From contig JAITQC010000052.1 of NCBI GenBank assembly GCA_031289115.1, forward strand, positions 1 through 42,617: DNA of 42,617 nt, written 5' to 3'. The DNA is from Planctomycetota bacterium (GTDB taxonomy: Bacteria; Planctomycetota; SZUA-567). Each line of letters begins with the position of its first letter. The first letter of the stretch is position 1. The position numbers and the translations under genes are program-made. Below the pieces are notes generated by a model. The model searched no databases, was not told the DNA's origin, and saw only the letters and a program-made list of their open reading frames with translations. Below, in pieces: positions 853 to 41,554 of this stretch.

Positions 853-942
853 AGACTAGCGAAGCGGGGTGAAGGGTGACTTGTTTTTCCCGCCAGACGA
901 CTAGCGTCCGGCGGCGAACGATGCTGTTTTCACCAGGGTAAA

Positions 943-1650: not shown

Positions 1651-1770
1651 AATCCGCCGCTAAATTTTTCGCCACCGGTTTCACCGCTTGGGTGGCGTCA
1701 GGTTGCTTGGGGTAAAAATTATTGCCACCTAACCCGGCCAAGTAAAGCAGGGGAAGGCGTGTTTACTGCG

Positions 1771-3738
1771 TCAGCTTGGGGAAGGCAGAGCCGGAGTCAG
1801 GCGGTTGGCTTCGGCCAGGAAAAACTCCCATTCGGTTATAAACGCCTGCCGGGAAACGCGGGAGAGGTGGCGGTAACGCGTCTCCGCCTCGGCCTGGATA
1901 CGCTGGCGGGTCGCCTCAATTTCACTTAGCACCACCAGAGCCCGCTGGTAGAGAAAACGCACCTCTTCCGACGCCTCAGCCAGGGTGACAGGGGTTAGGT
2001 GGCTTAACCAGACCGCTAGCCAGTCCCCGCCTGAACGGGCTCCCTCGGGAATCTCCTTGATGAAAATTTCCCCCAATCGCCGGCGTTCCGCCTGGATAAA
2101 GGCGGAAAATTCCGCCAGGCAAGCATGGAGATAATGCCGCATCCCTTCAAGTTCAAAAGCCTGCCGGGTTATAGCCCAGAGATGGTGCCCTTTGACTCCG
2201 AGAGTGATCGCCTCTTCGAAGAAAGATGGTTTGTAGAAGAGGGTGGCGAGTAGGAACCGCAAGGCTTGCCAACGGTAGCTACTCCGGAGGGTGGTAAGAA
2301 GGTAGCGGCCAAAAACCCAGGCTTTCCAACCTAGACTTAGTCCCGAGCGGGTGGCCGCCGCGGTCCGCCGCTGGGGCCAGCGCCGGCGTAGGACGCTGGC
2401 GCGTTCAAAATAGCTCTTCATGTCAGGTGAATAGGCGTTGTGGAGTATTTGCTTGTAATCTTCCACCACCCGCTCGGCCGGGCGGGCCGGCTGGAAATTC
2501 AGGGCGAAATGGTGGGTGTTGTTGCCGCTGGTGTCACCCCGGAGGCGACCCTCCTTAGCCAGGCGGTCGTAAAGGTCGGTGTCGGGAAGAGCGTTAAGAA
2601 TGCCCAGCATCGCCAGGGGTATGCCCATTTCCTGGATGCAGTCGCTCATTCGCCTGGCAATGTCCTCTGGGTCGGCGTCAAAGCCGATGATAAAACCAGA
2701 CATTATCTGAATTCCCCGCGACTGGATAAGCGCCACTTTGTCCGCGATGGAACCCCGGGTGTTAACGTGTTTCTTGGTTTCCCTGAGGCTTTCGGCGCAG
2801 GGGGTTTCGATGCCGACAAACACCGAGTCAAAGCCGGCCGCCACCATTTGGTCAAGTATTTCCGGGTTGTCAGCGAGAGTAAGAGTGGCTTCGGTGAGGA
2901 AGGTGAAGGGGTAGCTGTGCTCGCGTTGCCAGGCGGAAAGGTCGGTAAGGAGCCCCAGGGCGCGTTCACGGTTGCCGATAAAATTATCATCCACCAGGAA
3001 GACAGAGTCGCGCCAACCCAGGCGGTAAAGTTCGTCCAGTTCCCGGCGTAGGTACGGGATGGGTTTGTTCCGGGTCCGCCGGCCAAAACGGCGCCAAATG
3101 TCGCAAAACTCGCAGCCAACCGGGCAGCCGCGGGAAGCCTGGACCGGCATCACCGCGTAGTGGTCGAAGTCAATAAGGTCGAAACGGGGTAGCGGGGTGT
3201 TTTGCAGGGTGGGAAACTCCCCGGCCGTGGCGATAACGGCGGTAGGGCCGAAATGCTGGCGGATATCCGCCGCCTCCGCCGTAGTGGTCGGGGCGGCGTA
3301 AGCTTGACGGAGCTTGTCCTGGCGTAAGTCAGCCAGGAACTCGGGCCAAAGGGATTCTGCCTCGCCAATGAAATAAGTGTCGACCGGACCAGTCTCGCGA
3401 TAGGCGGTGGTGAGGTAGGGGCCGCCTAGCACGGTTTTTTTTCCGGCTGAATGGAGTTGTTCCAGTACCTCTAGCAGGCTCTTTTTCTGGGTTATCATGG
3501 CTGACACCATGACCAGGTCAGCCCAGGCGAGGTCGGCTGGACTTAGGGGTGAAACGTTAAGGTCAACCAATTTGAGGGAAAACTCCTCCGGCGGCAGGAG
3601 GCCAGCCAGGGTGAGGAGTCCCAGCGGTGGCATGCTGGATTTTTTACCAATCATGCCAAGGGAATGGGAAAAACTCCAATAAGTGTCAGCGGGTGTCTCG
3701 GGGTAGAGAAGAAGGATGTGGCGGGGGGTGGCGGGCAA
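1771..3738 (-). CDS. B12-binding-domain radical SAM protein (DUF4070-type)
   Basis: N-terminal Rossmann/B12-binding-like region, RGCPVGCEFCDIW (CxxxCxxC) cluster motif, and a long C-terminal extension. Confidence 0.85.
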   Translation of the reverse strand: MPATPRHILLLYPETPADTYWSFSHSLGMIGKKSSMPPLGLLTLAGLLPPEEFSLKLVDLNVSPLSPADLAWADLVMVSAMITQKKSLLEVLEQLHSAGKKTVLGGPYLTTAYRETGPVDTYFIGEAESLWPEFLADLRQDKLRQAYAAPTTTAEAADIRQHFGPTAVIATAGEFPTLQNTPLPRFDLIDFDHYAVMPVQASRGCPVGCEFCDIWRRFGRRTRNKPIPYLRRELDELYRLGWRDSVFLVDDNFIGNRERALGLLTDLSAWQREHSYPFTFLTEATLTLADNPEILDQMVAAGFDSVFVGIETPCAESLRETKKHVNTRGSIADKVALIQSRGIQIMSGFIIGFDADPEDIARRMSDCIQEMGIPLAMLGILNALPDTDLYDRLAKEGRLRGDTSGNNTHHFALNFQPARPAERVVEDYKQILHNAYSPDMKSYFERASVLRRRWPQRRTAAATRSGLSLGWKAWVFGRYLLTTLRSSYRWQALRFLLATLFYKPSFFEEAITLGVKGHHLWAITRQAFELEGMRHYLHACLAEFSAFIQAERRRLGEIFIKEIPEGARSGGDWLAVWLSHLTPVTLAEASEEVRFLYQRALVVLSEIEATRQRIQAEAETRYRHLSRVSRQAFITEWEFFLAEANRLTPALPSPS

Positions 3739-4029
3739 AATAAACCTCCTGTGGTGGTAAAGTACCTTGGCTAAGTGTCGCGGCTTAGCCTCATCTGGCG
3801 TACCGGAATCATCCGGGTCGGGATAGGGCGTTCTAGACCGGGAGACAGGGGAAAACCTGGGTTAACCAGTTGGAAAAACCTGGCTACCCGATAGGAAAAA
3901 AACACCCGACCGGGGCTCCCGGTGGAGGTTAACCCTGGTCTCTAGGCGGGGATGGTTTGTGGTGTCCTCGAGTCTCGTCCCGGCGTGACTTGGCGGTGGA
4001 AACGGCCCGCCCGGGCGGGGGTGAGTAGT

Positions 4030-4884
4030 CTATTCCTCCTCCACCCGCAGGAGCTTGCGGGTTTTGTCAGTCCGGTAACGCTCCAGAGCGCGGTTCTGGT
4101 AACCGGCGTGACTGGCGGTAAGGTGGTCAAAAAAGGCGCGCACAAAGGGGTCCTGGGCGATTTCCAGGTCGGCTAATTCCCTTAGGGCCTCTTCCCGGGT
4201 TCGTTTCCCCCGGTACACCAGGCGGAAGGCGGCCTTGAGAGACTTGATCGACTCTTCCGGCACCTGGTGGCGACGCAGGCCCTCCAGGTTGATGTTACGC
4301 ACCTTGGCCACGTCCTGGTTGTAACCATCCGCCACCATGTAGGGCGGGATGTCGGTTCTTACCCCGGAACAGGGAGCGACAAAGGAGAGGGTGCCGACAG
4401 TGACAAAATGATGCAGTAGGCAGGCCCCGGAGATCCAGGCCTGGTCCTCGATATGGACATGGCCAGCCAGCTGGGAATTGTTGGTGATAATAACGTTGTT
4501 ACCAACCTGGCAATCGTGGGCGATGTGGACATAGGCCATAATCAGGTTGTCAGAGCCAATGCTGGTGGTGCCGCCGCCAATCCCGGTGCCACGGTTGATA
4601 GTGACAAACTCGCAGATCCGGGAGCGGTCGCCAATAACCAGGTTGGTGTCTTCGCCCTTGTATTTAATGTCCTGGGGGTCGCCGCCGACCACTGCCGCCG
4701 TACCGACTTGGCAATATTCGCCAAGACGGGTTCGGGTGACAATGTGGCAGTGTGGCGACAACCGCGATCCCCTACCAATGCTTACCCCGGGACCAACGAC
4801 GGCAAAGGGCCCGATAACCACCTCCGGACCTATTTCAGCGCTGGAGTCGATACAGGCGCTAGGGTGAATGGATTTACTCATCAA
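4030..4884 (-). CDS. lpxA: Acyl-ACP--UDP-N-acetylglucosamine O-acyltransferase LpxA
   Basis: Left-handed beta-helix hexapeptide repeats: IHPSACIDSSAEIGPEVVIGPFAVVGPGVSIG...; GDPQDIKYKGE and AYVHIAHDCQVGNN are LpxA hallmarks. Confidence 0.95.
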   Translation of the reverse strand: MMSKSIHPSACIDSSAEIGPEVVIGPFAVVGPGVSIGRGSRLSPHCHIVTRTRLGEYCQVGTAAVVGGDPQDIKYKGEDTNLVIGDRSRICEFVTINRGTGIGGGTTSIGSDNLIMAYVHIAHDCQVGNNVIITNNSQLAGHVHIEDQAWISGACLLHHFVTVGTLSFVAPCSGVRTDIPPYMVADGYNQDVAKVRNINLEGLRRHQVPEESIKSLKAAFRLVYRGKRTREEALRELADLEIAQDPFVRAFFDHLTASHAGYQNRALERYRTDKTRKLLRVEEE

Positions 4885-5067
4885 TTTTCGTTCCTAAATC
4901 CCCCATGGTTGACTGGAATAACCTCTGGTTCACACCAGGTCTGGCCAAAAAATACCGCTCCCCCGCCGCCACCTGGATTATCTACCGGAGGTTCCCCTGT
5001 TTTTCCTGTTTCACCTTTACGCTACCCGTTTTTGGCAAGGGCGAAAACAGGGAAGACAAAAAATTAC

Positions 5068-5085
5068 CCCCGCCCGAAGGCGGGG
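5068..5085 (-). terminator. Intrinsic terminator with TTCG loop between lpxC/fabZ and lpxA
   Basis: Minus strand: CCCCGCC-TTCG-GGCGGGG followed by GTAATTTTTT. Confidence 0.8.
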
Positions 5086-5104
5086 ATGACAAGTACTATT
5101 ATAA

Positions 5105-6397
5105 CTACAGGGATTGTCCGGCGTCAATCATGGCAAATTTAATTATTGCCTCAACCGTGTTTTCCCCCTCCACCGTGGCCCAGGTGCGGACAATCCCGAT
5201 CCGCCCTTTCATCTTCACCGCCTCGGCGTGGAGGTGCATACAGTCGCCCGGAACTACTTGCCGCCTCCACTTAACTTCTTCCGCAGTCATGAGTACCGCT
5301 AATTTGTTTTGGTCGCGGTATTCTCCTAGCATCATGATCGCACCCGCTTGCGCCAAGGCTTCGATCTGGAGCACCCCAGGCATGATCGGTTGCCCGGGAA
5401 AGTGTCCCTGGAAGAAATGTTCGTTACCGGTGAGGTTCTTCAGGGCGGTGATGCTTCGCTTGGGTTCCAGGGCGATAACCCGGTCGACCAGAAGGAAGGG
5501 ATAGCGGTGGGGCAGGAGTTGCATGATTTCGCGAATGTCCATCAACCCCTTCGGGTGTTCGACCCGGCTAATCTCCTCTTCCAGACGCCGGGTTAGTTCG
5601 AGGTTAAGGCGGTGCCCGCTTTTCACCGCCACCACATGCACTCCCAGGCGGCGGTTGAGTACGGCCAGGTCGCCCAAGAGATCCACCAGTTTGTGGCGGA
5701 CACACTCGTCAGGGAAGCGCAGTTGATTGTCAACCACCTGGTTGCCGTCCAGGATTATGGTGTTTTGCGGGTTGGCTCCCTTGCCAAAACCAGCCGAGAG
5801 CATCGCCTCGGCCTGGGCCCGGGTCGCGAAGGTGCGGGCGGGGGCGAGGTCGGCCTGGAAAGCGCCGTCAGTCAGGGTGAAAGTGAAGTTGCCCCGGGCC
5901 AGGGGAGAATCGGGGTAGTCGAGTAGATAGGTGAGGGTGAGGTTTCCGTCAGCGGCGGGATAGGCGGTAAGTCCAGCGCTGGCGGAACCCACCGCCAGCG
6001 ACTGCTTGGGGATAAACACCGATTGTTCCGCCGCCTGCTCTTCCAGGCCAGCCGCCAGGATTTGGCCAGTGAATTCACCCGCCGAGCCATCGAGACCTGG
6101 CACTTCCGACCCCTCGGCGGTAATGCGGAGGTTGTCGATACCTAAGCCCCAAACCGCGGCCAGGAGGTGTTCGAGGGTGGCGATTTTAGACTTGTACTTG
6201 ATAGTCGCGCTGGTGCAGTGGCCTTGGCCGTCGACTATGCCTGGCCGCAGGCGTTCCTGGCCATCGGCGTTTGCCACTACCAACCCGCTACCAACCGGGG
6301 CGGGGGACAGGGTGACCCGTCCCGGTTCACCGGCGTGGAGTCCGATACCGCTAAACACCACCTCCTGCGAGATGGTGCGTTGCTTAAGCCCCATCAT
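5105..6397 (-). CDS. lpxC/fabZ: Bifunctional LpxC deacetylase / FabZ dehydratase fusion
   Basis: LpxC part: QRTISQEVVFSGIGLHAGEPGRVTL, EVPGLDGSAGEF, HKLVDLLGDLAVL. FabZ part: LLPHRYPFLLVDRV, GHFPGQPIMPGVLQIEALAQ. ATG at 6397 overlaps the lpxD stop (ATGA). Confidence 0.95.
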   Translation of the reverse strand: MMGLKQRTISQEVVFSGIGLHAGEPGRVTLSPAPVGSGLVVANADGQERLRPGIVDGQGHCTSATIKYKSKIATLEHLLAAVWGLGIDNLRITAEGSEVPGLDGSAGEFTGQILAAGLEEQAAEQSVFIPKQSLAVGSASAGLTAYPAADGNLTLTYLLDYPDSPLARGNFTFTLTDGAFQADLAPARTFATRAQAEAMLSAGFGKGANPQNTIILDGNQVVDNQLRFPDECVRHKLVDLLGDLAVLNRRLGVHVVAVKSGHRLNLELTRRLEEEISRVEHPKGLMDIREIMQLLPHRYPFLLVDRVIALEPKRSITALKNLTGNEHFFQGHFPGQPIMPGVLQIEALAQAGAIMMLGEYRDQNKLAVLMTAEEVKWRRQVVPGDCMHLHAEAVKMKGRIGIVRTWATVEGENTVEAIIKFAMIDAGQSL

Positions 6398-7485
6398 GTC
6401 TGGTTCCCTTCCCCGCCAGTCAGCCGCTCCGCCATTTCCCGTACTTTCTTGCGAAGCCGCGCCAGTCCTTTCAGGTTTTGCCATTCCTTGAGTTGCTCGC
6501 GCATGGGCTGGGCCGGGGTGCCGATCCATACCCGATCTTTTTCGGGAACCCCCGCCTCCGCCCCCGGGATGCTTTTGGTCACTCCCGACTGGCCGACAAT
6601 GGTCAGGCGGTCGCCCAGGGTGATGTGACCCACCACCGCTGTCTGGCCGCCTATTTGGACTCCGTTACCGATCCGGGCCGAGCCAGCGACCCCCACCTGG
6701 GCGGCAAAGGCGCAAAAAGCGCCCAGACGCACGTTGTGGGCGATCTGGATAAGGTTGTCAAGCTTGCTCCCGCGTCCTATTCGGGTTTCCCCGAAACGGG
6801 CGCGGTCGATACAAGTGTTGGCCCCGATTTCGACATCGTCCTCCAGGACCACCACTCCCGCCTGGGGAATCTTGAAATACTCACTGCCGGTCCAGGCGTA
6901 ACCAAAGCCGTCCGCCCCGATTACCGCTCCGGCGTGGATGATACAGCGTTTTCCCAGCTTTACCTGGTGGTAGAGAGTGGCCCGGGGGTAAAGGACTGAG
7001 CCTTCGCCCACCTCGGACTCCACCCCTACGTAGGCCTGGGGATAGATGCGACAGTGGTCAGCGATTACCGCTCCCGCCTCGATTACCGCTCCCGCCCCTA
7101 CCGACACGTCTTGGCCTAGGCGAGCGGAGGGGTCCACCACCGCCCGGGGGTCTATCCCGGGGAGGGGATGGGGCGGGGGAGGGAGGATAAGGGCAGCCGC
7201 CTTGGCGAAGGCGAGGTCGGGGTTTTCTACCCGGAGGAGGGTAAGGCCAGTCGCGTTTACCCCAGGCGCTACTATCACCGCCTCGGCTTTGGTGGTGGTG
7301 AGAAGGTGTTGATAGCTGGGGTTACTGAGGAAGGACAGCTCGCCTGGCTCTGCTTCCGCAAGCCCAGCTAAGCGTGACACTGTTTGACCCGGCCTGGCGT
7401 TAACCAGCTCCGCCCCCAACTGGCGGGAAATATCCTCCAGGGGGGTGGGAGCTGGTTCCCGGCGCTTTGCGGAAACGGTGGTCAT
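6394..7485 (-). CDS. lpxD: UDP-3-O-acylglucosamine N-acyltransferase LpxD
   Basis: Hexapeptide repeats; GADGFGYAWTGSEYFKIPQAGVVVLEDDVEIGANTCIDRARFGET is diagnostic. Confidence 0.95.
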   Translation of the reverse strand: MTTVSAKRREPAPTPLEDISRQLGAELVNARPGQTVSRLAGLAEAEPGELSFLSNPSYQHLLTTTKAEAVIVAPGVNATGLTLLRVENPDLAFAKAAALILPPPPHPLPGIDPRAVVDPSARLGQDVSVGAGAVIEAGAVIADHCRIYPQAYVGVESEVGEGSVLYPRATLYHQVKLGKRCIIHAGAVIGADGFGYAWTGSEYFKIPQAGVVVLEDDVEIGANTCIDRARFGETRIGRGSKLDNLIQIAHNVRLGAFCAFAAQVGVAGSARIGNGVQIGGQTAVVGHITLGDRLTIVGQSGVTKSIPGAEAGVPEKDRVWIGTPAQPMREQLKEWQNLKGLARLRKKVREMAERLTGGEGNQT

Positions 7486-8135
7486 AGGGGGTTTTTCTGG
7501 GGGTCTTGCTTGTACTGCTGGTAACGGTGGTTCATCAAATCGGTTATCGATTTGGTGAGGTTGGCCTTGTCGTCCACGAACTGGATGCGGCGCATAAGAA
7601 TTTCCTGCTGCACCGCCATCGGGTCCATGGCCTTCATGGCTTCCTCGGAAATAGCGGGGTCGGGTGAGGCGATAATGATGTCGTACTTGTAGTATTCAGC
7701 TAGCAGTTTACAGGCGCGCTGAAAGGCGTTGTAGGCGTTTTGCCAGAGCGAAGCCTCTTGCTCACGCAGGCGTCGGGCGAAATCCTCCTGCATGGACTGG
7801 ACATCCACCCGGGCTGACTGGATCTCCATCATTGATTTACGCCAGGCGGGCGAGTCCTGGGGTTTCAGGGGGTTGTTCTGGAGCGCACGCTCCTGCTCGC
7901 CAATACGTTGTATTTCAGCGTCGATCTTTTGAGTCTCGGGCTGGAAAGTGTTGCGGATTTCGTCACCGGTATCCTTGATATATTGGTAGTTCAGGAAAAC
8001 CTGTTGGATAAAGACAACACCAATACGCTTGGTTTCCGGAGCCTGGGGAGCTGCTTCACCAGCTTGGCTAGGGGTAGTGACTATTCCAAACAGGGTTAGT
8101 AACGCAAAGGCGATAGGCACCAACTTCCGCATCAT
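7482..8135 (-). CDS. OmpH/Skp-family periplasmic chaperone
   Basis: Signal peptide MMRKLVPIAFALLTLFG; helical KIDAEIQRIGEQERALQ region; located upstream of lpxD and overlapping it by ATGA. Confidence 0.8.
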   Translation of the reverse strand: MMRKLVPIAFALLTLFGIVTTPSQAGEAAPQAPETKRIGVVFIQQVFLNYQYIKDTGDEIRNTFQPETQKIDAEIQRIGEQERALQNNPLKPQDSPAWRKSMMEIQSARVDVQSMQEDFARRLREQEASLWQNAYNAFQRACKLLAEYYKYDIIIASPDPAISEEAMKAMDPMAVQQEILMRRIQFVDDKANLTKSITDLMNHRYQQYKQDPQKNPL

Positions 8136-8205
8136 ACTCTCCTCTTGAAAAGATAAATACACAAGGCGAAGGTGGTTGTACCCTGCTCCCCCACCCCGCC
8201 GGCGG

Positions 8206-8253
8206 TTGTTTAAAGCAATCTTAACCGTATTGTTTAAAGCAACCTTAATCGTA
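8206..8253. repeat. Tandem 24-bp direct repeat (2 copies, 22/24 identical) upstream of ompH-lpx
   Basis: TTGTTTAAAGCAATCTTAACCGTA followed directly by TTGTTTAAAGCAACCTTAATCGTA. Confidence 0.85.
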
Positions 8254-8280
8254 TGGTTACTGATGGTAAACGCAAGAAAA

Positions 8281-8299
8281 AACCCGGTCCGGCCGGGTT
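8281..8299 (-). terminator. Intrinsic terminator after the FliK-like gene
   Basis: Minus strand AACCCGG-CCGGA-CCGGGTT followed by TTTTCTT. Confidence 0.75.
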
Positions 8300-8360
8300 A
8301 TTCAGGAAATTCTGTTATAGGTCGCCAGTGTCAAGCGGCGGAGTGGCCCCGGGGGGAAGG

Positions 8361-11267
8361 CTAACCCTCGATATCCAGTCTTCCATCAAGACGGCGGGGA
8401 AGCCGGATGACTGGAGCGGTGGGAGGCGTGGGAGAGGGCGGCTCCGGGGGATTAGCGGGGGGTGGAGGCGGGGGGGGAGGAAGAAGCAGGAACTTTGGCT
8501 TCAGGCGGAAGCCTTTATCCCGGAGAGCCTGGCCAAGCTCTTCTTGGTGGCTAGAGAGACGCTCGACCGTGGCGGAGTCGCTGGCGAAGAGGTTTAGTAA
8601 CAGATCGTGGCCAAAGAAACGCAGGTCACCTAAAACCGGCCCCATATGGGTAGTGGCTAGGTCAAGGATAACCCGGGCTGACCAACCTCCCTCGCGCTGG
8701 GAGCGCTGGCGGTAAAACATCTGCATACGCCCTTCGCCGCCAGTTTGTCCCGCCAGGCTAAAAGGCACTTCGGCTAGCATCACCGCTGGTTCCCGGAGGG
8801 TTCCGGCCAGGTTTTCCGCTTTGGTGGCTATTTCCTGCCGCCCCAGGTCACGTAGAGCGCTAGCCGCGTCAGCCAGGCGGTTAAGGACAGGGTCGGCCGC
8901 CAGGGTGGCGCGTTCAGTTTCCATAAGGCGGGTGGTGGCTAGGCGAAGGACGCTAGGCGGGAGGTTGGCCAGGCTATATCTTGCCCCCGACGCCTTGGCT
9001 GGCTGGTCGGAAAGGAGGTTTTCCACCAGGCGGTCAACCACTTGTCTTAAGGCTGCTCGTTCCTCCGGCGGGTCGCTTAGTAACCAGCGTTCCAGGTTTC
9101 CCGCTGGTCGGAGGATATCAGCTTCCGGGGAGTTTACGCCGGGGAGGGAGAAACCGTGGTTGGCTGGTTTAAGGAGGGTTTCCGGCCGTGGCAGCCCGGC
9201 CCGTTCCGGGTTTTCCTTCTCGCTTGGTGCCGGAGGCGTCTTTTCGCCAGTCGCCGCCGCCTCTTCTGGCGTCTCTACCTCTGGAGTTGTCCCAGGTGCC
9301 GGAGGCGGGGGAGGAGAACTTCCTTCCTGGGAGCCAACCTTGCCAAGTTCACTAAACAGGGCGGTAAGCGCCTGGTCGATACGGGGAAGCAGTGGGTGAC
9401 GCTCCAGCACCGCCTGGGTGGCGGTTTCGATTAGCGCCATCGCCTGCCCCAGGTTTTCCCGGCCAAGGCCGGCCAGGTGGTTAGCCAGGCTTTGCGCCGA
9501 ATCCGGCTGGTCAAGCTTAATCGACAAGTTGTCAAGAAGGCGGGTGGCGGTTTGTAAAAGCGTTTCCACATTAGCTGGCACAGGTAAATTCGCCAGCGCC
9601 TGCTTTACCTGTTCCACAAGCCGCGCCGTGGTGGCTTGCCGCCCGAGGATGTCAGCCATACCCCCCACCAGGGGAGGGGAAAGGGGTATGTCGTGTCCGG
9701 ACAGGCGGGCGGCGGCCTGGATAAAGGCATCCCGATCGTTTTCTCCCGCCAGAGCGGAAAAAGCGAGGATGTTTTGCATGTTTTGCCGGTTGATAGGAAG
9801 GCCCTGGTGCATCAGGGCGATGGCGGCGCTGTTACTGGTCGGGCCTGGGGTAAGTCCCCCGGCCCGGATAAGGATGGCGGCTGCCCGTTCGGCAATGTTA
9901 GCAGGAACCTGGCCTTTTCCCTGGGGAAGCAGGGAGTCGATATTTTGCCCCAGCGGCAGTTCCGCGCCTTTAATGAGTTGCCCCAGAGCTTCCGTCAGGC
10001 TGGTCCCGGCGAGGTCGGGCGGAGTCAGGCTGGTGAAGGGGATGAATTTACCCTCGCTAGCCGTGGCCATCTCCCCGCCCGGGGGAGTGGGTATGGGTAT
10101 GGGGGAGTCGCTTGGTTTGGCGCTGGCGGCCGCCGCCGCCGTCGCCGCTGGCGGTGGTGTTTCCAAAGCGCCAGGTGGCCAGCCCGCCAGGAGGGTGGAG
10201 GATGGTTCGTTGACTGGAGCGGCTGTCCCCAAGCCTGGCGTTGTTACGGCTGCGCTTTGGCCCGGCAGAGGTAGTGGACTAGCTTTCGCCAGGCCACTGT
10301 TTTCGGGAAGCGGCCCGGGAAGGTCGGGGCGGGTTATGCCTGTACCGCCCGGGGGGGTCGGGTTTTCCGCCTGGCCAGTCTCTGGCGGTGGAGCGGTTGG
10401 CGTGGGAATAGTCGCCACCCCGTCGGCCGCCGCGGGCAAAGATCCTGGCAGGGTAACGCTGTCTGGCATAGCCAAGTCGCCGGGAAGAGGAGTGGCGACC
10501 AAGCCGCCGGGGAGAGGACTAGTTATCAGGCCGCCCGGGAGAGGAGTGGCGATCAAGTCACCGGGGAGAGGACTAGCAACTACGCCGCCCGGGAGAGGAG
10601 TGGCGACCAGGCCGCCAGGCAAAGGAACAGCGGCGGCTTCCCCGCTTGTGACTAGGCTAGCGTCAGGCAGGGTGACGACTGGCCCCAGCACACCCGGCAA
10701 TACAACTGGGGAACTACCCGGGGTCAGGGTCAGGCTGGGGTTGGCTACCGCAGGGAGGGGGCGGCTAAGTTCAAGCGCCGCCTTTTCCAAAAGCTGGCTA
10801 GAGCGGAGCGCAAGTTCCGGCAGGGTTTCTAGAAGTGGCTCTAGGACCAGACCGGCCGGGATTGGGGTAGGCGGTTTTTCCGGAGTGACGCTGGCTATGC
10901 CTTGGCCGGGGACCAGTACTTCCCCGGAGACCGGATTATCGCCAGAAGCGGGGCGGGTGTTAGGGCCGTAGCCAGCCGGGATGGGGGTGCCGGCCGCTGG
11001 CAGGGCTGGTCCCTGCACCACTAAAACGGGTTTCCCCTCCTCTGACACGTCGGAACGAAGAATTAGGGTTTGTCCGGGGGCAAGGGGAGTGCGGGAAGTG
11101 ACAGCGAAGCGGTTGCCTGACCAGCGGAGAATGTAAAGGCCGTTTCCGCTGTCTTCCTCGACTGAGGCCATCACCACGCTACCGGGTGGCGGCAGGGAGT
11201 TTCCGCCACTGGAGGAGGGACGGTTGTCCATCCGGCCAACTAAGGTCCGCTGGAGGTTTTCCGGCAT
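8361..11267 (-). CDS. Flagellar hook-length control FliK-like protein, very Pro-rich
   Basis: C-terminal WSARVILDLATTHMGPVLGDLRFFGHDLLLNLFASD resembles the FliK C-terminal domain; low-complexity Pro/Gly N-terminal half. Confidence 0.6.
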   Translation of the reverse strand: MPENLQRTLVGRMDNRPSSSGGNSLPPPGSVVMASVEEDSGNGLYILRWSGNRFAVTSRTPLAPGQTLILRSDVSEEGKPVLVVQGPALPAAGTPIPAGYGPNTRPASGDNPVSGEVLVPGQGIASVTPEKPPTPIPAGLVLEPLLETLPELALRSSQLLEKAALELSRPLPAVANPSLTLTPGSSPVVLPGVLGPVVTLPDASLVTSGEAAAVPLPGGLVATPLPGGVVASPLPGDLIATPLPGGLITSPLPGGLVATPLPGDLAMPDSVTLPGSLPAAADGVATIPTPTAPPPETGQAENPTPPGGTGITRPDLPGPLPENSGLAKASPLPLPGQSAAVTTPGLGTAAPVNEPSSTLLAGWPPGALETPPPAATAAAAASAKPSDSPIPIPTPPGGEMATASEGKFIPFTSLTPPDLAGTSLTEALGQLIKGAELPLGQNIDSLLPQGKGQVPANIAERAAAILIRAGGLTPGPTSNSAAIALMHQGLPINRQNMQNILAFSALAGENDRDAFIQAAARLSGHDIPLSPPLVGGMADILGRQATTARLVEQVKQALANLPVPANVETLLQTATRLLDNLSIKLDQPDSAQSLANHLAGLGRENLGQAMALIETATQAVLERHPLLPRIDQALTALFSELGKVGSQEGSSPPPPPAPGTTPEVETPEEAAATGEKTPPAPSEKENPERAGLPRPETLLKPANHGFSLPGVNSPEADILRPAGNLERWLLSDPPEERAALRQVVDRLVENLLSDQPAKASGARYSLANLPPSVLRLATTRLMETERATLAADPVLNRLADAASALRDLGRQEIATKAENLAGTLREPAVMLAEVPFSLAGQTGGEGRMQMFYRQRSQREGGWSARVILDLATTHMGPVLGDLRFFGHDLLLNLFASDSATVERLSSHQEELGQALRDKGFRLKPKFLLLPPPPPPPPANPPEPPSPTPPTAPVIRLPRRLDGRLDIEG
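10476..10637. repeat. Six 27-bp tandem units (9-aa [TS]PLPG[GD]L[VI]A repeat) inside the FliK-like gene
   Basis: Protein segment LPGGLVATPLPGGVVASPLPGDLIATPLPGGLITSPLPGGLVATPLPGDLA; DNA units counted by eye. Confidence 0.85.
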
Positions 11268-29719: not shown

Positions 29720-30064
29720 CCCCTTCCGGAGACACTAACAAAGATGACGATGGATAATTGATCGGCCAAGGTCAAGTAAAACACCACTTGCCTGGCGCGG
29801 CAAGAAAAAAGCTTCCGTCCCGGGGGGTTGGCCAAGAGGCGCATTCGACGAAACCCGGCGGGTTGAGTTGTTGCCACAAGACAATTTGGAACATCCTAGC
29901 AGTTTGACTTGGCGGCGGCAAGGTTATTTTATCCGGTTCCTGGCGTTTCTCCTGGTTTAAGTAAAAGCTCGCCAATAATCAGGCGGATAATTTTATCTAA
30001 GGAAGCCACGGTATCGAACTAAAATTTCCACTTCCAGCAAAATATACGCTGACCACCACACCTC

Positions 30065-30429
30065 TTATTGCGGGCGCATTCTTTAGTTCAGGGTAAATTG
30101 AAGGGTGGGGTCGGGGTATTGAAAAGATTACGAACGCCGGCAAAGAGTGGGGCAAACCCGAACCGTTTTACCGTGTGCGCCCGAACGAAGTGGTGCTTGG
30201 TTTTAACACCGAATCGCCGTTCGGAGAAAAGTGCGGAGAAAATCAGACCAAGGAAAAGATTTTAGAGCTTTTGCGCCAAAATCCGAAGATAAACGCAAAG
30301 ACTATTGCCGCCGAGATAAACCTTATCCCGTGCAGGGTCGAAAAAGCAGACCACCACAAACCCTCCTGTTTTGGCGCTTACTATCACTGCACAAACTTGC
30401 ATAAAAAGAAATGGTTATGCAGTGTATAG
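30065..30429 (+). pseudogene. C-terminal remnant of an AlbA_2/RecG-related ATP-binding (winged-helix) protein
   Basis: Frame reads IEKITNAGKEWGKPEPFYRVRPNEVVLGFNT ... KEKILELLRQNPKINAKTIAAEINL with no N-terminal domain and a disrupted C-terminus. Confidence 0.55.
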
Positions 30430-30489
30430 CACAAATATTGATTTTATGTCTGGTTTATGCTATGCTATTGAGTAAATGGAGGTATTTTT

Positions 30490-31710
30490 ATGAGCCAACT
30501 ACTTGCGCGCCCGCAATATCTTGACCAGCTTATCAGATTCAAGGACAAAGACCTGATTAAAGTTGTAACCGGAATCCGCCGATGCGGCAAATCAACCTTG
30601 TTTGATCTCTTTACGCAATACCTGAAAGCGCAAGGTGTGGAGGGCCGGCAGATTATCCGGCTCAATTTGGAGTTTCCCGAATACCACGAACTGCAAACCT
30701 ATAGGCAACTTTACGATTATATCAAGGCGCAGTTGCAGGATGATTGCCCGAACTATATCTTCATAGATGAGGTTCAGACCGTGCCGGAGTTTCAGCGGGC
30801 GGTGGACGGTTTATATGTCCGCAAAAACTGCGATGTCTATATCACCGGCTCAAACGCCCACATCCTTTCGGGCGATTTGGCGACCCTGCTTTCGGGACGG
30901 TATGTGGAAATCAAAATGCTTCCGCTGTCCTTCCGCGAGTATATTTCCGCCCTTGGCGAGAGAAACGACCTTAGCGCGAAATACCGGAACTACTTGGAAA
31001 ATAGCTCGTTTCCCTACGCCTTGGAGCTTTCCCAAAAGAAAGACATTCGGGCATATCTCGGTAGTATTTTTGATTCGGTCATACTTAAAGATATTGTCAC
31101 GCGAAGGAAAATAGCCGATGTGACGGGACTTCAAAGCGTGATCCGTTTTGCCTTTGACAATATCGGGAACCTGACGAGTGCGACGCGGATCGCCAACACA
31201 ATGATTTCCGGCGGCAGGAAAATTTCCGTCCATACGGTGGAGAATTACCTGGAAGCACTGACCGGGAGCTTCATTCTGTATAAGGCGGGACGGTATGACG
31301 TGAAGGGTAAGCAGCAGCTTGTCACGGGGGCGAAATATTATGTCTCCGACATTGGCTTACGTTACTACCTTCTGGGTAGCAAGAAAGCTGACATGGGGCA
31401 TATTCTTGAAAACGTGGTGTATTTGGAGCTTTTGCGACGCGGTTATGAGGTTCACGTTGGCAAGGTCGCCAGCGCCGAGGTGGACTTTATCGCTAGCGGC
31501 GAAGACGGCGAGGAATATTACCAAGTCGCCTACACGGTGGAGGGCGAACCGGGTAAGGACGGAAAAACTATACTGGAGCGTGAGCTTGCGCCACTAAAAT
31601 CTATCCGCGACCACAATCCAAAGTATCTTTTAACCATGGATTTTACACCGAAAACCTCTCACAACGGCATCAAGCAAATCAACGCTTTGGCTTGGCTTTT
31701 GGGCGAGTAG
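30490..31710 (+). CDS. AAA ATPase with C-terminal DUF4143
   Basis: VVTGIRRCGKSTLFDLF (Walker A), YIFIDEVQTVPEF (Walker B), YITGSNAHILSGDLATLLSGRYVEIKMLPLSFREY; C-terminal DFIASGEDGEEYYQVAYT. Confidence 0.93.
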   Translation: MSQLLARPQYLDQLIRFKDKDLIKVVTGIRRCGKSTLFDLFTQYLKAQGVEGRQIIRLNLEFPEYHELQTYRQLYDYIKAQLQDDCPNYIFIDEVQTVPEFQRAVDGLYVRKNCDVYITGSNAHILSGDLATLLSGRYVEIKMLPLSFREYISALGERNDLSAKYRNYLENSSFPYALELSQKKDIRAYLGSIFDSVILKDIVTRRKIADVTGLQSVIRFAFDNIGNLTSATRIANTMISGGRKISVHTVENYLEALTGSFILYKAGRYDVKGKQQLVTGAKYYVSDIGLRYYLLGSKKADMGHILENVVYLELLRRGYEVHVGKVASAEVDFIASGEDGEEYYQVAYTVEGEPGKDGKTILERELAPLKSIRDHNPKYLLTMDFTPKTSHNGIKQINALAWLLGE

Positions 31711-31720
31711 AGAACGCTCT

Positions 31721-31784
31721 AACCCAAGTTCCCCAGTTTAGAATCCAAGTCCTTGTATACCAAGAGTCCGACCCCAAAAGTTTT
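31721..31784. repeat. Dispersed element copy B
   Basis: AACCCAAGTTCCCCAGTTTAGAATCCAAGTCCTTGTATACCAAGAGTCCGACCCCAAAAGTTTT; begins 11 bp after the DUF4143 gene stop. Confidence 0.8.
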
Positions 31785-32050
31785 GACTACATTTACCCTG
31801 GCAAACCGATTTACCGCACTCATTCGGGGTAGCCAAAGGTAGTCGTTCCTGGCGGATTTGTTGACTTTCCCGGGGGACTATGACACAGGTTTTTGTATAT
31901 CTATTCCAATAAGAGTTGGTAGGCCACTTCCAGCATGTCGATTTCCGTCAAGTCACCTAAAACCCGGCTCGGTTCTATTCACCGCCGCTTACGCCAGCCG
32001 GAAAGGCTTCAAGAATAGGCTGGGGTAACTCTTCCGGGGCCTGGGTGTTT

Positions 32051-32338
32051 TCATACCTCGCCAGCGTCGTCTTTCGCTAAAATATCCGTAAACATCTCTT
32101 TCGTATTTGAATACCGCTTAAGTTTGCCATTGGCAAACGCTTCGTCACCCTCACGCAGAGCCGCCTCCGTCACCGCGTTGTACCGCGGTAACTTTAACTC
32201 GAACGGCAAGCCACCGTGGAGAATTGACTGACGTAGAAACATGTTGATCGCATCGGACATCGTGATGCCGAGCTGATGAAAGATTTCAACCGCTTGCGCT
32301 TTGGTGGTAGCGTCGGTGCGAAACTGAATAGTAGGCAT
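32051..32338 (-). CDS. RelB/DinJ-family antitoxin (no adjacent toxin found)
   Basis: MPTIQFRTDATTKAQAVEIFHQLGITMSDAINMFLRQSILHGGLPFEL is the classic DinJ N-terminal RHH. Confidence 0.88.
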   Translation of the reverse strand: MPTIQFRTDATTKAQAVEIFHQLGITMSDAINMFLRQSILHGGLPFELKLPRYNAVTEAALREGDEAFANGKLKRYSNTKEMFTDILAKDDAGEV

Positions 32339-32629
32339 TGTATCAGCTCCCTTCGTGATCACGTGCGAAGAGTAATCTATCGGGGGTTCGTGACATAAAC
32401 TAGCTTGCCGCAGCGACACATTTGCCAAGCCCGCATCCAGGGATTGATGATCGCTACGAGCCAAACAAGGAACCGTGCCAGAGCATTCTGTCGCGCCGTC
32501 TACGCCACATCCCGCAAATTGGAGCGCCGCGAAAGCGGTTCAAATCCCGTCTTCCGGGAGTTAGGACCCAAAATGGGCAACAACATAAGTGCATGACGGA
32601 GAAAATATGCCGCCCACACTTCCTCCGGT

Positions 32630-33012
32630 TCATTCGGCGGGATTGACGATTTGCAGACCGGGCCAGCCCAAATCGACAAGGCGTTGAGCGCGAATGATGC
32701 GGGTGGATTGCGTAGGCAGAGCGGAAGCGACGACAATGGCGTCGGGCAACTTCAATTTGGTAGAACTTCGTAGAGAGACGGCAATCACCTCCACATCATC
32801 GTTCAAGGGAAGCACCGTCAGTTCGGAAAGAAATTCTTTTACTCGCTTTTCGCCGGTCGGGGACAAGCCCGGCCATGCAGGCAATTCATTCGAGTGATGA
32901 CGCTGGCATACCGTTCATAAAAGGATGTTCCTTCGACAAAACGCACTCAAGGCTCCATCCCCTTCAAAAAGTATATGCTGGTGTTCGTGTCGAAAATACA
33001 CTTACCATTCAT
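32630..33012 (-). pseudogene. Disrupted VapC-type PIN-domain toxin
   Basis: MNGKCIFDTNTSIYFLKGMEP(stop)VRFVEGTSFYERYASVITRMN, then a frame change to NELPAWPGLSPTGEKRVKEFLSELTVLPLNDDVEVIAVSLRSSTKLKLPDAIVVASAL. The pieces jointly cover a PIN domain. Confidence 0.8.
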
Positions 33013-33238
33013 CCCGCATCTCCCGCTGAATTTCCAGCGCGTCCCCGGCAAAGTCCCCCGTTTCCGCCAAACTTCCCGCAAGACCAGAGAACGGCTTTTG
33101 GTTCGGGCGTAGAGCGGTGGACGGGGTAATGGTTACCGTGACTTCCGCTCTTCCCGGGGGGATATCCGCCGGGATGGTCAGATCAAGCAGGAGGCGGTGG
33201 TTTTCCGGGATATTCACCTTTTTTTCGATTGTCGTCAT
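33002..33238 (-). CDS. VapB-like antitoxin partner of the disrupted PIN toxin
   Basis: MTTIEKKVNIPENHRLLLDLTIPADIPPGRAEVTVTI ... GDALEIQREMRDEW; stop overlaps the vapC start. Confidence 0.65.
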   Translation of the reverse strand: MTTIEKKVNIPENHRLLLDLTIPADIPPGRAEVTVTITPSTALRPNQKPFSGLAGSLAETGDFAGDALEIQREMRDEW

Positions 33239-33619
33239 GTGTTGCATCCTTGTCGGTTGGTAATGTGAACCACCGCAAGAAAGAAAACCGCACTCTTCCA
33301 TTATACGGGAGGGCGTGGCGGATAGCCATAATTGCCTGCCGCCGAGAATCGGCCTGGAGTTCGTCAAAACGACAATTCTGACGCGGCATTCACATTGTCA
33401 GGCGCCGAAGACACAAGGGAAATCGCAAACAGGTGTACTGTTCCCGGATATTACGGTCAACTCCATATTAAGGGCGTTCTTGATGTCGCCCGCGGATTGA
33501 CCAGTTGGCGAACTTCACTTTATCCAACGCGCTGTGAACCCCCTCCTTTTAGGGAGGGGAGGATGTCAAGGCCTTGGAAAGTACGAGGCACTTTTCGTTG
33601 GCGTATGGAAAGCCATGTT

Positions 33620-33637
33620 CGTCACTTTTCATAGGAG
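33620..33637. repeat. 18-bp direct repeat, left copy
   Basis: CGTCACTTTTCATAGGAG, identical to 34955..34972. Confidence 0.85.
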
Positions 33638-33740
33638 CAACGACACAGCGTCCAGGCGAGGCGGGAAAAGCTCTTTTATCAGAGCATTCACTTTTGCGGT
33701 TAGATTATTTAAGTGGCGGCGAGAATTATGACGCTGGCAA

Positions 33741-33974
33741 TTATTGCTTGGCTTTATTTATATCAGCAGTTTCAGTCTGTTCGCGCAATAATTCCTCCGC
33801 GAGATAGCCATCGCTTCGGCAGTGCATATCGGAAACGCCGCGTCTAATCTCGCTGTATAGACGTGACTTGTACAGTTTATCAAAAGCGTCGCGGAGAGGA
33901 ACTCCGGCAAGTTTGGCGTATTCGTTCACTACGCCGTCATAGACGTAGTTTTTTATATAAGTGTCTGTTTTCAT
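33741..33974 (-). CDS. Small protein, possibly DUF3791-related, downstream of the DUF3990 gene
   Basis: MKTDTYIKNYVYDGVVNEYAKLAGVPLRDAFDKLYKSRLYSEIRRGVSDMHCRSDGYLAEELLRE; start shares a base with the DUF3990 stop (TAATG). Confidence 0.6.
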   Translation of the reverse strand: MKTDTYIKNYVYDGVVNEYAKLAGVPLRDAFDKLYKSRLYSEIRRGVSDMHCRSDGYLAEELLREQTETADINKAKQ

Positions 33975-34462
33975 TATGTTTCCCTTGCTTCCGTAAATTT
34001 AATGTACGCATCGATTACCGCTTGCGTTTGGAAGCAGTATTGAAAGTTCGGCTTATTGTAGCGCAGCCGCTTGATTGCTTCGCGCGCCGAAATAATATTT
34101 CTGAAATACAGCTGCAAGGTCTGAATCACCTTATCGTTCGCAACACCACCGATTACAATGTCATATTCGGGTACGGTTTTGCCCAGGCGGCAGTCGGTAA
34201 CAAACCGTAGCCATTGTTGCGAGTGGGTATTGAACTCCAACACGCGAACGTCGTCGGAGAGCGTTTCAACCGCCGGTCTGTGCAGAAACGTATACGCCGA
34301 CACAACTCCCGTGCCCCGCTCCTCTTTGAACCGCTCTGCCCAGCGGACGGCTTGGTCTTCGAGCGCCGTAAGATAGAATCCCTTGCCGAAATCGGTTTTC
34401 TCACGCGAAAAGGCGAGATTTGGCTTCTCTATCGCTGTATATGAACCGTGGTACAATATCAT
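33974..34462 (-). CDS. DUF3990 protein (predicted ADP-ribosyltransferase-like fold)
   Basis: MILYHGSYTAIEKPNLAFSREKTDFGKGFYLTALEDQAVRWAERF ... VPEYDIVIGGVANDKV. Confidence 0.8.
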   Translation of the reverse strand: MILYHGSYTAIEKPNLAFSREKTDFGKGFYLTALEDQAVRWAERFKEERGTGVVSAYTFLHRPAVETLSDDVRVLEFNTHSQQWLRFVTDCRLGKTVPEYDIVIGGVANDKVIQTLQLYFRNIISAREAIKRLRYNKPNFQYCFQTQAVIDAYIKFTEARET

Positions 34463-34698
34463 TGGAAGACACCTCGCTTTTTCATAAGTTCAAGCAAGTC
34501 GGCGACAATCCACTCCTTGCCTTGCGTGTGGAGAATATCGTAGAAAGGCAATATATAACTGTCAAAAATATCGCTGTCCTCCGTCAGCATTTGGTAAACC
34601 TTATCACCGGTCGTTTTTAACTCCTCCGCCAACGCCTCTACACAGAACACCGAGAATAGCGATTGTTCTGCCGACATTTCCGCACGTTTTTTACTCAT
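34459..34698 (-). CDS. DUF3791-family small protein upstream of DUF3990
   Basis: ELKTTGDKVYQMLTEDSDIFDSYILPFYDILHTQGKEWIVADLLELMKKRGV; ATGA overlap with the DUF3990 start. Confidence 0.7.
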   Translation of the reverse strand: MSKKRAEMSAEQSLFSVFCVEALAEELKTTGDKVYQMLTEDSDIFDSYILPFYDILHTQGKEWIVADLLELMKKRGVFQ

Positions 34699-34880
34699 CA
34701 CCGCCACCTCCTAACTCCATCGGGCGAATCATACTATCGCTAAAGGCGATTTCGGCCTCAGTGATACCGTACTTGAGATGGCGCTTCGCGTCTGCCCACG
34801 GTTCGCTAAAGTATTGCCGGGGAACGAAGGCAAAAATTTGCTTTTGCCAAGTGTGGCGTAGATGAGATTTACGCCATAAA
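34691..34880 (-). pseudogene. Fragment of an unidentified gene upstream of DUF3791
   Basis: Start-less frame ...HLRHTWQKQIFAFVPRQYFSEPWADAKRHLKYGITEAEIAFSDSMIRPMELGGGGDE(stop), ending over the DUF3791 start (GATGAGTAA). Confidence 0.35.
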
Positions 34881-34954
34881 AAAGCGGACGATATTTATTC
34901 TCAAATACTGATATAGTTTTTTAGTTCTTTCCTTGTCCGCGAATGCATCAATGG

Positions 34955-34972
34955 CGTCACTTTTCATAGGAG
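34955..34972. repeat. 18-bp direct repeat, right copy
   Basis: CGTCACTTTTCATAGGAG, identical to 33620..33637. Confidence 0.85.
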
Positions 34973-35227
34973 GAAACAATAATCTGGGAGAATATTCTGG
35001 GTGTGAGATTGGAGTTGAGCGGCGAAAAATCTCTAATAAGCTTTTCCTGGCATTTGTCGGGAGTGGGAATTGCGGAGAACAGGCAATCCCCCACAATCTA
35101 ACCCACGACGCTGATATATCAACGAAAAGCCAACTTGACGGAATACCCGATGGAATGGATCTGCGTCGTGCGACGAAGATGTTTGAGGGAAGACTTTACT
35201 CTCCCTTGTCTCGAATAACCCCCGGAG

Positions 35228-40425: not shown

Positions 40426-41554
40426 ATGTCGGTTAATACTAACGTCCGTGGGTTTGGACATCGATCGGGTCGGGAGCTCCTCCTGTTGTCGACACTGTTT
40501 GCGACAGGTTTGGCTTTTTATTTGTCCGGCTGCGGGGAAACTCCTTCGGCGGTTGGCAACCGTAACGCCACCGCTGGCGGGACAGGCGAGGCGCGGGTGC
40601 GAGTTAACATGCTTCCCCTGTCTATACCCCCGCCCCCCCCCCCCGCGCCCGCCCGCCGCAACATTTGGAGCGCCTACACGGTCACCCCGCGCAGGGAAAC
40701 CCCCCCCGGCGCCGCCACGCAGCAACTTTGGCAACGCTTACACTGACACCACGCTCTGGCAACCCACCCCGGTGGTTACCAGTTCCGGCGTCATCTATTC
40801 AACCTCCACTCCCGAACCGTACCCCCAGGGTGTAACGGTTGGGCCGGTTTACTCTTCCGACGTCATCTATTCCACACCCACTCCGGAACCGTATCCGCAG
40901 GGTGTAACGGTTGGGCCGGTTTACTCGTCCGACGTCCTCTATTCCACACCCACTCCCCAACCATACCCGCAGGCGGTGACGGTTGGGCCGGTCTACTCAC
41001 ATGTGTACCAAACAAGCCCAACTTCGACCGATGGGGTGGTAATCGGGCCAGTTTATTCCAGCGACCCCAGTTCTTCCACTCCCATGGTTGGCGTAGTGGC
41101 CTGGGACCCGCTTAATCCGGTGGCGGCCGAATCTGGCGTCGCGCCAGCGGGTGGGTCACTGGTGAGTTCTAGCCCGAATTATCCAGTCTTACCTGCCTCA
41201 ACCCAGTCAGTCATCACAGCCCAGGCTGGCGTGACCGGCTTGGGTGGCGGCTACCAGTTGCGACCCGCCACTGACATTCCTCCCGGTAACCACCCTAGTG
41301 ACGCCGCCCCCTCGCAGTGGTTTGAAATAATCCGTCCCGGCGGAGCTCCTCTCCGGATTGGCCGGGTGACTTCCGCCTGTGTCTGTGTCGGGGTAAGGGT
41401 ACCCAAGCGGGTGATTGGCCAAGGAGAGCGGGCCCTGATTGAACTGCGGGCAGTCGCCAAGCCACCCCGCTGGGGTCTTGAATACGCCTTCTTCGTCAAT
41501 GTGGCGGAGCCGGTCAAGGAAACCCTGGAGGCAGGTGTGGCCTTTAACGGTTGA
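40426..41554 (+). CDS. Exported lipoprotein with DUF1573-like C-terminus, split across two frames at poly-C tracts
   Basis: Frame 1 (40426..40746) carries the leader LLLLSTLFATGLAFYLSGC; frame 2 (to 41554) carries the repeats and TSACVCVGVRVPKRVIGQGERALIELRAV. C12 at 40633-40644, C8 at 40700-40707. Confidence 0.65.
40790..41005. repeat. Three 72-bp tandem units (24-aa VIYSTPTPEPYPQGVTVGPVYSSD repeat)
   Basis: Units at 40790-40861, 40862-40933 and 40934-41005; the third is degenerate at its end. Confidence 0.9.

What the first reader, a model, noticed from the sequence alone, without database searches (positions are those of the whole stretch)
33620..34972. DUF3791-DUF3990-small protein cassette bracketed by an 18-bp perfect direct repeat
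Seen: CGTCACTTTTCATAGGAG at both 33620-33637 and 34955-34972, enclosing three minus-strand genes joined by ATGA and TAATG overlaps. An 18-bp exact repeat is unlikely by chance in 42 kb. Knowledge: DUF3990 is predicted to be ADP-ribosyltransferase-like and is often found near DUF3791. Inference: a mobile toxin-antitoxin or anti-phage cassette in which the ART-like protein is sandwiched between two small proteins, either of which could be the antitoxin. The repeat could be a target-site duplication or recombination scar.
Basis: partly seen in the sequence, partly recalled or inferred. Interest (0 to 1): 0.65.

Follow-up and report, generated by a model that had tools for sequence, protein, structure and literature searches.

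The report
Mobile ADP-ribosyltransferase defence toxin cassette
A three-gene cassette, probably an ADP-ribosylating toxin held in check by two related small proteins, sits between two copies of an 18-letter repeat; relatives spread between bacterial phyla and sit inside other antiviral systems, so it is a mobile candidate phage-defence module that has not been tested at the bench.

Summary
The 18-mer is exact at 33620-33637 and 34955-34972 and brackets DUF3791 (34459-34707), DUF3990 (33974-34462) and a 77-aa gene (33741-33974), with the overlaps described. All three match PADLOC's candidate system PDC-M13, so the cassette is an instance of a listed but unvalidated kind.

DUF3990 has an invariant or near-invariant H5, Y30 and Q141, the HY-[E,D,Q] pattern of diphtheria-type ADP-ribosyltransferases, and a confident fold (pLDDT 94). 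The 77-aa protein is a divergent DUF3791 paralogue. In other genomes the two small proteins are fused in either order, and one phage contig fuses an HTH to DUF3791. I therefore read them as a paired antitoxin rather than two alternatives.

The window's clade mixes six phyla, so the unit is horizontally mobile. Relatives lie inside a type III-B CRISPR operon and inside hsdM-hsdS.

The 18-mer is not shown to be a target-site duplication: near-copies lie on other contigs of the same genome. Bracketing direct repeats recur at 9 of 82 other cassettes (about 1% of control positions; 0 of 136 control genes). Their sequences are unrelated and 17 to 177 nt long, which suggests recombination at host repeats. 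No empty site could be found.

The parts
34955..34972 (+). upstream copy (relative to the genes) of the 18-bp direct repeat CGTCACTTTTCATAGGAG
   Evidence: exact match; 248 nt before the DUF3791 start
34459..34707 (-). DUF3791 protein, 82 aa from GTG (internal ATG a few codons on): first half of the proposed antitoxin pair
   Evidence: Pfam PF12668 E 7.6e-19; PADLOC PDC-M13A E 5.7e-28; 74% identical to the L019 homologue
33974..34462 (-). DUF3990 protein, 162 aa: predicted ADP-ribosyltransferase (H5, Y30, Q141)
   Evidence: Pfam PF13151 E 5.9e-47, weak ART-PolyVal E 6.8e-5 below its cut-off; PDC-M13B E 3e-56; conserved residues; AlphaFold2 pLDDT 94.4, pTM 0.87
33741..33974 (-). 77-aa protein, PDC-M13C family, divergent paralogue of DUF3791: second half of the proposed antitoxin pair
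   Evidence: PADLOC PDC-M13C E 3.4e-21; profile comparison with DUF3791 prob 81%, E 1.2e-5
33620..33637 (+). downstream copy of the 18-bp direct repeat
   Evidence: exact match; 104 nt after the 77-aa gene
34708..34954 (.). 247 nt between repeat and operon, 45% GC, no recognisable gene; not conserved in the homologous loci

Best explanation
The cassette is a chromosomal member of the candidate phage-defence family PDC-M13. It is a latent ADP-ribosyltransferase toxin (DUF3990) translated together with, and held inactive by, two paralogous small helical proteins (DUF3791 and the 77-aa protein) that act as one paired antitoxin or trigger. When the pair is lost or displaced, most plausibly during phage infection or when a partner immune system is inhibited, the enzyme would transfer ADP-ribose from NAD+ to an essential target and arrest or kill the cell. 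The three genes move between phyla as a unit and in this genome lie between two copies of a host-dispersed short repeat, probably the trace of recombination at that repeat. Shown by sequence: gene content, conserved triad, paralogy of the small proteins, fusions, cross-phylum spread, recurrent bracketing repeats. Inferred: toxicity, neutralisation, target, trigger, route of integration.
For: Family identity of all three genes. H5, Y30, Q141 conserved in 94-97% of 101 homologues and invariant or nearly so in A2; the characterised phage-defence toxin CmdT belongs to the HY-[E,D,Q] group (PMC11618068), and Pfam places DUF3990 in the ART clan (PMC7955679). Confident fold matching viral ART-PolyVal models (E 1.7e-4), with ART catalytic domains among the best though non-significant PDB hits. 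In 90 loci, 54 have DUF3791-DUF3990-M13C and 19 DUF3990-M13C-DUF3791, and the rest include fused small proteins. Fusions occur in both orders. HTH_3-DUF3791 fusion directly before DUF3990 in a phage contig. Cassette embedded with 4-nt overlaps between hsdM and hsdS on Moraxella plasmids and between a CARF gene and csx20/cas1 in a type III-B operon of a related genome, with the same Cmr6-CARF-cassette order in a second. Window clade = six phyla, support 96; DNA homology to L019 limited to the three genes. Bracketing repeats at 9 of 82 other loci versus 0 of 136 control genes, P = 1e-4.
Against: No experiment on any DUF3990-DUF3791 pair was found in the papers searched. Best PDB fold match is not significant (E 0.47, TM 0.42-0.44). 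Flanking genes of about 80 loci show no recurrent defence partner. The window copy stands alone, not in a known defence operon. The window's small proteins carry no DNA-binding domain. The single-chain model of the three proteins has only pTM 0.60.
Confidence: 0.68

Rival explanations
1. An addiction or maintenance toxin-antitoxin module of mobile elements: the same toxin and antitoxins, but the selected function is stabilising plasmids and islands rather than stopping phages.
For: 71 plasmid records carry DUF3990, 28 of them predicted conjugative and 42 from Bacteroides; pBF9343 has it next to a zeta toxin; in the window it lies near a RelB/DinJ gene and a broken PIN gene; no recurrent defence neighbours.
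Against: Embedding inside hsdM-hsdS and a type III-B CRISPR operon is hard to explain by maintenance alone; most copies surveyed are chromosomal singles without other mobile-element genes.
Confidence: 0.22
2. The 18-mers are a true target-site duplication made by a transposase acting in trans on the cassette.
For: Exact short direct repeat around a three-gene cassette; cassette and surroundings are AT-rich.
Against: Near-copies on at least three other contigs of the genome; repeats at other cassettes range from 17 to 177 nt and several are only 93-98% identical, unlike a fixed-length duplication; no transposase and no terminal inverted repeats at the cassette; the low-GC region runs past both repeats.
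Confidence: 0.12
3. The flanking 18-mers are a coincidence of a dispersed short intergenic motif and have nothing to do with how the cassette arrived.
For: Motif also lies at single sites on C66, C98, C201 and C202; the closest homologues L019 and L020 have no bracketing repeat of 15 nt or more; intergenic-matched controls are too few to exclude this (0 of 24, P = 0.09).
Against: Bracketing repeats at 9 of 82 other cassettes against 1.0% of 3553 control positions and 0 of 136 control genes; in L052 the repeat is the 3' part of a tRNA-Val gene, a classic integration trace.
Confidence: 0.35
4. DUF3990 is not a toxin but a regulatory or inactive ADP-ribosyl-binding protein, since the third catalytic residue is Q instead of E.
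For: Q141 in 94% of homologues; no characterised member found.
Against: HY-Q is included in the pattern reported for CmdT homologues (PMC11618068); H and Y are almost invariant, which suggests catalysis.
Confidence: 0.1

Closest known systems
PDC-M13 (PADLOC-DB v2 phage defence candidate)
   Same: All three proteins match its models; same gene content; PDC candidates were defined by a guilt-by-embedding approach (PMC12988326, citing Payne et al. 2024), which fits the embedded copies seen here.
   Different: Activity of PDC-M13 is unvalidated as far as found; here it is a stand-alone copy between direct repeats.
PDC-M10 (PADLOC-DB v2)
   Same: The second copy in this genome (C102) has a DUF3990 and a 153-aa partner that matches PDC-M10B (E 4e-56); that partner is DUF3791-like in its first half and M13C-like in its second.
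   Different: The antitoxin pair is fused; the data suggest PDC-M10 and PDC-M13 are two forms of one system.
CmdTAC
   Same: Three-gene phage-defence system with an HY-[E,D,Q] ADP-ribosyltransferase toxin (PMC11618068).
   Different: Uses an antitoxin plus a SecB-like chaperone; the small proteins here are paralogues of each other and matched no SecB model.
ParST, DarTG and RES-Xre ADP-ribosyltransferase toxin-antitoxin systems
   Same: ART toxin with a neighbouring antitoxin; the single-chain model's best PDB match is ParT of the ParT-ParS complex, not significant (E 0.26).
   Different: No macrodomain or Xre/ParS antitoxin in the window cassette; different antitoxin family.
PrrC-type toxins embedded in type I restriction operons (recalled, not tested here)
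   Same: Toxin gene placed inside an hsd operon, as in Moraxella.
   Different: PrrC is an anticodon nuclease; no homology claimed.

Membership tests
PDC-M13 | DUF3990-type component | tested here: met
   PDLC04438 E 3e-56 over residues 1-160
PDC-M13 | two small protein components next to it | tested here: met
   PDLC04434 E 5.7e-28 and PDLC04442 E 3.4e-21
PDC-M13 | anti-phage activity | not testable with these tools
   needs phage challenge; none found in the papers searched
ADP-ribosyltransferase superfamily (HY-[E,D,Q] group) | conserved H, Y and E/D/Q | tested here: met
   H5 96%, Y30 97%, Q141 94% of 101 sequences
ADP-ribosyltransferase superfamily (HY-[E,D,Q] group) | ART fold | tested here: inconclusive
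   model pLDDT 94.4; viral ART-PolyVal model E 1.7e-4; PDB best PARP10 E 0.47, TM 0.42-0.44
ADP-ribosyltransferase superfamily (HY-[E,D,Q] group) | NAD+-dependent transferase activity | not testable with these tools
   biochemistry needed
type II toxin-antitoxin systems | small overlapping genes in one operon | tested here: met
   ATGA and TAATG junctions
type II toxin-antitoxin systems | antitoxin with DNA-binding domain | tested here: not met
   no HTH in the window proteins; present in the L106 relative, HTH_3 E 3.5e-12
type II toxin-antitoxin systems | toxicity and neutralisation | not testable with these tools
   needs expression tests
CmdTAC | SecB-like chaperone gene | tested here: not met
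   no SecB match in the cassette or the adjacent genes scanned
DarTG | macrodomain antitoxin | tested here: not met
   no macrodomain in the cassette
transposon or IS with target-site duplication | transposase or integrase inside the repeats | tested here: not met
   only the three genes lie inside
transposon or IS with target-site duplication | empty site with a single repeat copy | tested here: inconclusive
   nearest genomes held are of other genera and not syntenic; the same test at L044 also failed for lack of near relatives

The most novel reading that the evidence does not exclude
PDC-M10 and PDC-M13 are one system in which a heterodimer of two paralogous small proteins controls an H-Y-Q ADP-ribosyltransferase. 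The module is a plug-in effector inserted into type I restriction and type III-B CRISPR operons, where a CARF protein encoded just upstream could release it on cyclic-nucleotide signalling, and it spreads by integration at host repeats or tRNA ends, leaving locus-specific bracketing repeats of variable length.
Probability: 0.3. Interest if true: 0.75.

Novelty: new member of a known kind. Interest (0 to 1): 0.48.

Why it matters
PDC-M13 is reported as abundant (3,324 occurrences in rumen genomes, PMC13356809), yet its mechanism is unknown. The conserved triad, the paired and fusible antitoxin, the HTH-DUF3791 fusion and the embedded copies give concrete, cheap tests. If the type III-B copies are signal-controlled, they would add an ADP-ribosyltransferase to CRISPR ancillary effectors; one combined search of the open papers held found none described. 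The recurrent bracketing repeats bear on how small defence cassettes without a recombinase of their own move.

Tried and rejected
(1) Empty site of the window: the nearest genomes are other genera in the same family; the cyclase gene next to the cassette has matches in 14 of the 16 family genomes searched (own included), but its downstream neighbours are not syntenic. (2) Empty site at L044 (112-nt repeat): 39 of 41 genus genomes have the downstream gene, but in the loci examined none has the upstream gene beside it or the repeat. (3) The 18-mer as an IS end: C98 and C202 share 64 nt at 91% starting at the motif, but no transposase or terminal inverted repeat was found and the window copies share only 21 nt. 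(5) Alignment of the three-protein read-through chain with single small-protein fragments misaligned, so a reduced set was used; the resulting model (pTM 0.60) is too uncertain for an interface and its coordinates could not be read. (6) Recurrent neighbours: none beyond chance; the Cas1_IIIb hit among neighbours is probably a reverse transcriptase, since CRISPR queries found nothing at those loci. (7) The 'fused' label of L075 is an artefact of an over-long ORF. (8) Sequence search of the PDB with all three families: no credible relative.

Full report
OBSERVATION. The 18-mer is exact at both stated places and nowhere else in the window at up to three mismatches. Simulated windows of the same composition hold any 18-mer direct repeat in 3 of 200 cases and one within 3 kb in 1 of 200. 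The three genes, their strand and their overlaps are as described.

WHAT THE GENES ARE. DUF3791 (PF12668, E 7.6e-19) and DUF3990 (PF13151, E 5.9e-47) are confirmed. The third protein has no Pfam or NCBIfam match but matches PADLOC's PDC-M13C; the other two match PDC-M13A and PDC-M13B. The cassette is therefore an instance of a listed candidate phage-defence system. PDC candidates come from a guilt-by-embedding approach and most are unvalidated (PMC12988326); PDC-M13 is reported 3,324 times in rumen genomes (PMC13356809). Only five held papers mention DUF3990 or DUF3791; no functional study of the pair turned up among them.

THE PUTATIVE TOXIN. Over 101 homologues H5 is kept in 96%, Y30 in 97% and Q141 in 94%; in a 66-row alignment H5 and Y30 are invariant and Q141 nearly so. 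This is HY-Q, part of the HY-[E,D,Q] pattern described for CmdT, an mRNA ADP-ribosyltransferase of a phage-defence system (PMC11618068). AlphaFold2 gives pLDDT 94.4 and pTM 0.87. Foldseek finds viral ART-PolyVal models (E 1.7e-4) and a closer unnamed viral model (E 1e-11). Against the PDB the best hit is PARP10, with other ART domains below it, but none is significant (best E 0.47). I take the ART assignment as likely, not proven.

THE TWO SMALL PROTEINS. Profile comparison of DUF3791 with the 77-aa family gives 81% probability and E 1.2e-5, and iterative searches merge them: they are paralogues. In 90 loci the order is DUF3791-DUF3990-M13C in 54 and DUF3990-M13C-DUF3791 in 19. In L055 and the B. 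fragilis plasmid pBF9343 (L111) the two are fused as M13C-DUF3791; in L060, L064, L066, L071, L083, L104 and the second copy of this genome they are fused as DUF3791-M13C (in L060, L071 and L104 one half is supported only weakly by the single-family profiles, and the assignment leans on their similarity to the others). Fusion in opposite orders implies at least two independent events and a physical pair. In phage contig L106 an HTH_3 domain (E 3.5e-12) is fused to DUF3791 (E 6.5e-13) directly before DUF3990, the layout of a self-regulating antitoxin. The DUF3791-M13C fusions tested match PADLOC's PDC-M10B, so PDC-M10 and PDC-M13 look like two forms of one system.

SPREAD. The window protein groups with homologues from Bacillota, Lentisphaerota, Spirochaetota, Kiritimatiellota and Pseudomonadota with support 96; the best is 80% identical over the protein, from an Oscillospiraceae MAG. 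Several of these MAGs seem to be from termite guts, judged by their names only. DNA similarity between the window and L019 begins and ends with the three genes (34712-33777), and the 18-mer is absent there. Only 6 of 392 genomes sampled in the phylum have DUF3990. It occurs on 71 plasmid records. MAG binning errors could inflate the apparent cross-phylum spread, but the plasmid and cultured-strain copies do not depend on binning.

EMBEDDED RELATIVES. In two genomes of one related genus (G009, G004) the cassette is part of a type III-B CRISPR locus: cmr1, cas10, cmr3, cmr4, cmr6, a CARF protein, then DUF3990-M13C-DUF3791, and in G009 csx20 and cas1. The two CARF genes belong to different families. 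On Moraxella plasmids it sits between hsdM and hsdS with 4-nt overlaps at every junction. This supports a role alongside immune systems; control by CARF is only a suggestion.

THE REPEATS. In this genome the motif also occurs, with 2 mismatches, on C66, C98 and C202, and as 15 bases on C201; the 15-mer core gives 5 places against 0 for the control and its 14-mer core none in 30 relatives. The other copies lie within about 1 kb of contig ends. C98 and C202 share 64 nt from the motif onward. The low-GC stretch reaches from about 30.0 to 35.2 kb, beyond both repeats, so the repeats do not delimit a compositional island. I then asked whether other cassettes are bracketed. Exact repeats of at least 17 nt within 500 nt on each side occur at 9 of 82 other cassettes, against 1.0% of 3553 positions of equal span in the same loci and 0 of 136 single genes (P = 1e-4); against the 24 control genes with non-coding DNA on both sides it is also 0, but P is only 0.09. 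The repeats are unrelated in sequence: 46 nt in L032, 112 nt at 94% in L044, 58 nt at 93% in L028, 177 nt three times in L084, around the cassette and the next gene. In L052 the 3' part of a tRNA-Val gene with its terminator (92 nt, 98%) is repeated 2.08 kb further on, around the cassette and a kinase-like gene. Variable length and imperfect identity argue against a fixed target-site duplication and for integration by recombination at host sequences; the mechanism is inference.

VERDICT. Observation confirmed. Interpretation partly supported: ART-like toxin, mobility and a defence or toxin-antitoxin role are likely; the antitoxin is probably the pair; a target-site duplication is not shown. 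The cassette is a new member of a known candidate kind. The points I did not find described are the paralogy and two-way fusion of the small proteins, the embedding in type III-B and hsd operons (embedding as such is how PDC candidates were defined), and the recurrence of bracketing repeats.

Noticed in passing
L152 (G009:C50) 19-10719; L153 (G004:C80) 74-8571: In two genomes of a related genus the DUF3990-M13C-DUF3791 cassette lies in a type III-B CRISPR locus right after a CARF gene (TIGR02221 in one, Cas_APE2256 in the other); csx20 and cas1 follow in G009.
   Followed up: partly
L161 (Moraxella osloensis plasmid NZ_CP014236.1) 4454-8001: The same cassette is inserted between hsdM and hsdS of a type I restriction operon, every junction a 4-nt overlap.
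   Followed up: partly
G000:C102:10665-11111 and downstream (L018, L142): A second DUF3990 gene in the same genome, followed by a single fused DUF3791-M13C partner (PADLOC PDC-M10B).
   Followed up: yes
L106 (IMGVR_UViG_3300029946_000060) 2092-3271: HTH_3-DUF3791 fusion, DUF3990 and a short M13C-like ORF just before a gene that looks like a phage MuF-type head protein (the last by eye).
   Followed up: partly
L026, L028, L032, L044, L048, L049, L057, L084, L090, L052: Unrelated, locus-specific direct repeats of 17 to 177 nt bracket the cassette; L052 has a duplicated tRNA-Val 3' end and L084 a three-copy array that also brackets the next gene.
   Followed up: partly
G000: C98:127, C202:869, C201:17981, C66:19897: All other copies of the 18-mer core lie within about 1 kb of a contig end, as if near repeats that broke the assembly; C98 and C202 share 64 nt.
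   Followed up: partly
window 32051-33367: RelB/DinJ antitoxin gene and a PIN-domain gene that is broken (in-frame stop and change of frame), with a weakly RelN-like antitoxin reading frame before it.
   Followed up: partly
window 30000-35227: Low-GC stretch (about 0.47-0.53 against 0.58-0.59) with an AAA_14/DUF4143 ATPase and toxin-antitoxin remnants: probably an accessory island larger than the repeat bracket.
   Followed up: partly
L111 (pBF9343) 3555-5615: On Bacteroides plasmids the fused-antitoxin form is followed by a small gene and a zeta toxin gene.
   Followed up: no
window 10473-10634 and 40774-40989: Tandem repeats of 27-nt and 72-nt units.
   Followed up: no
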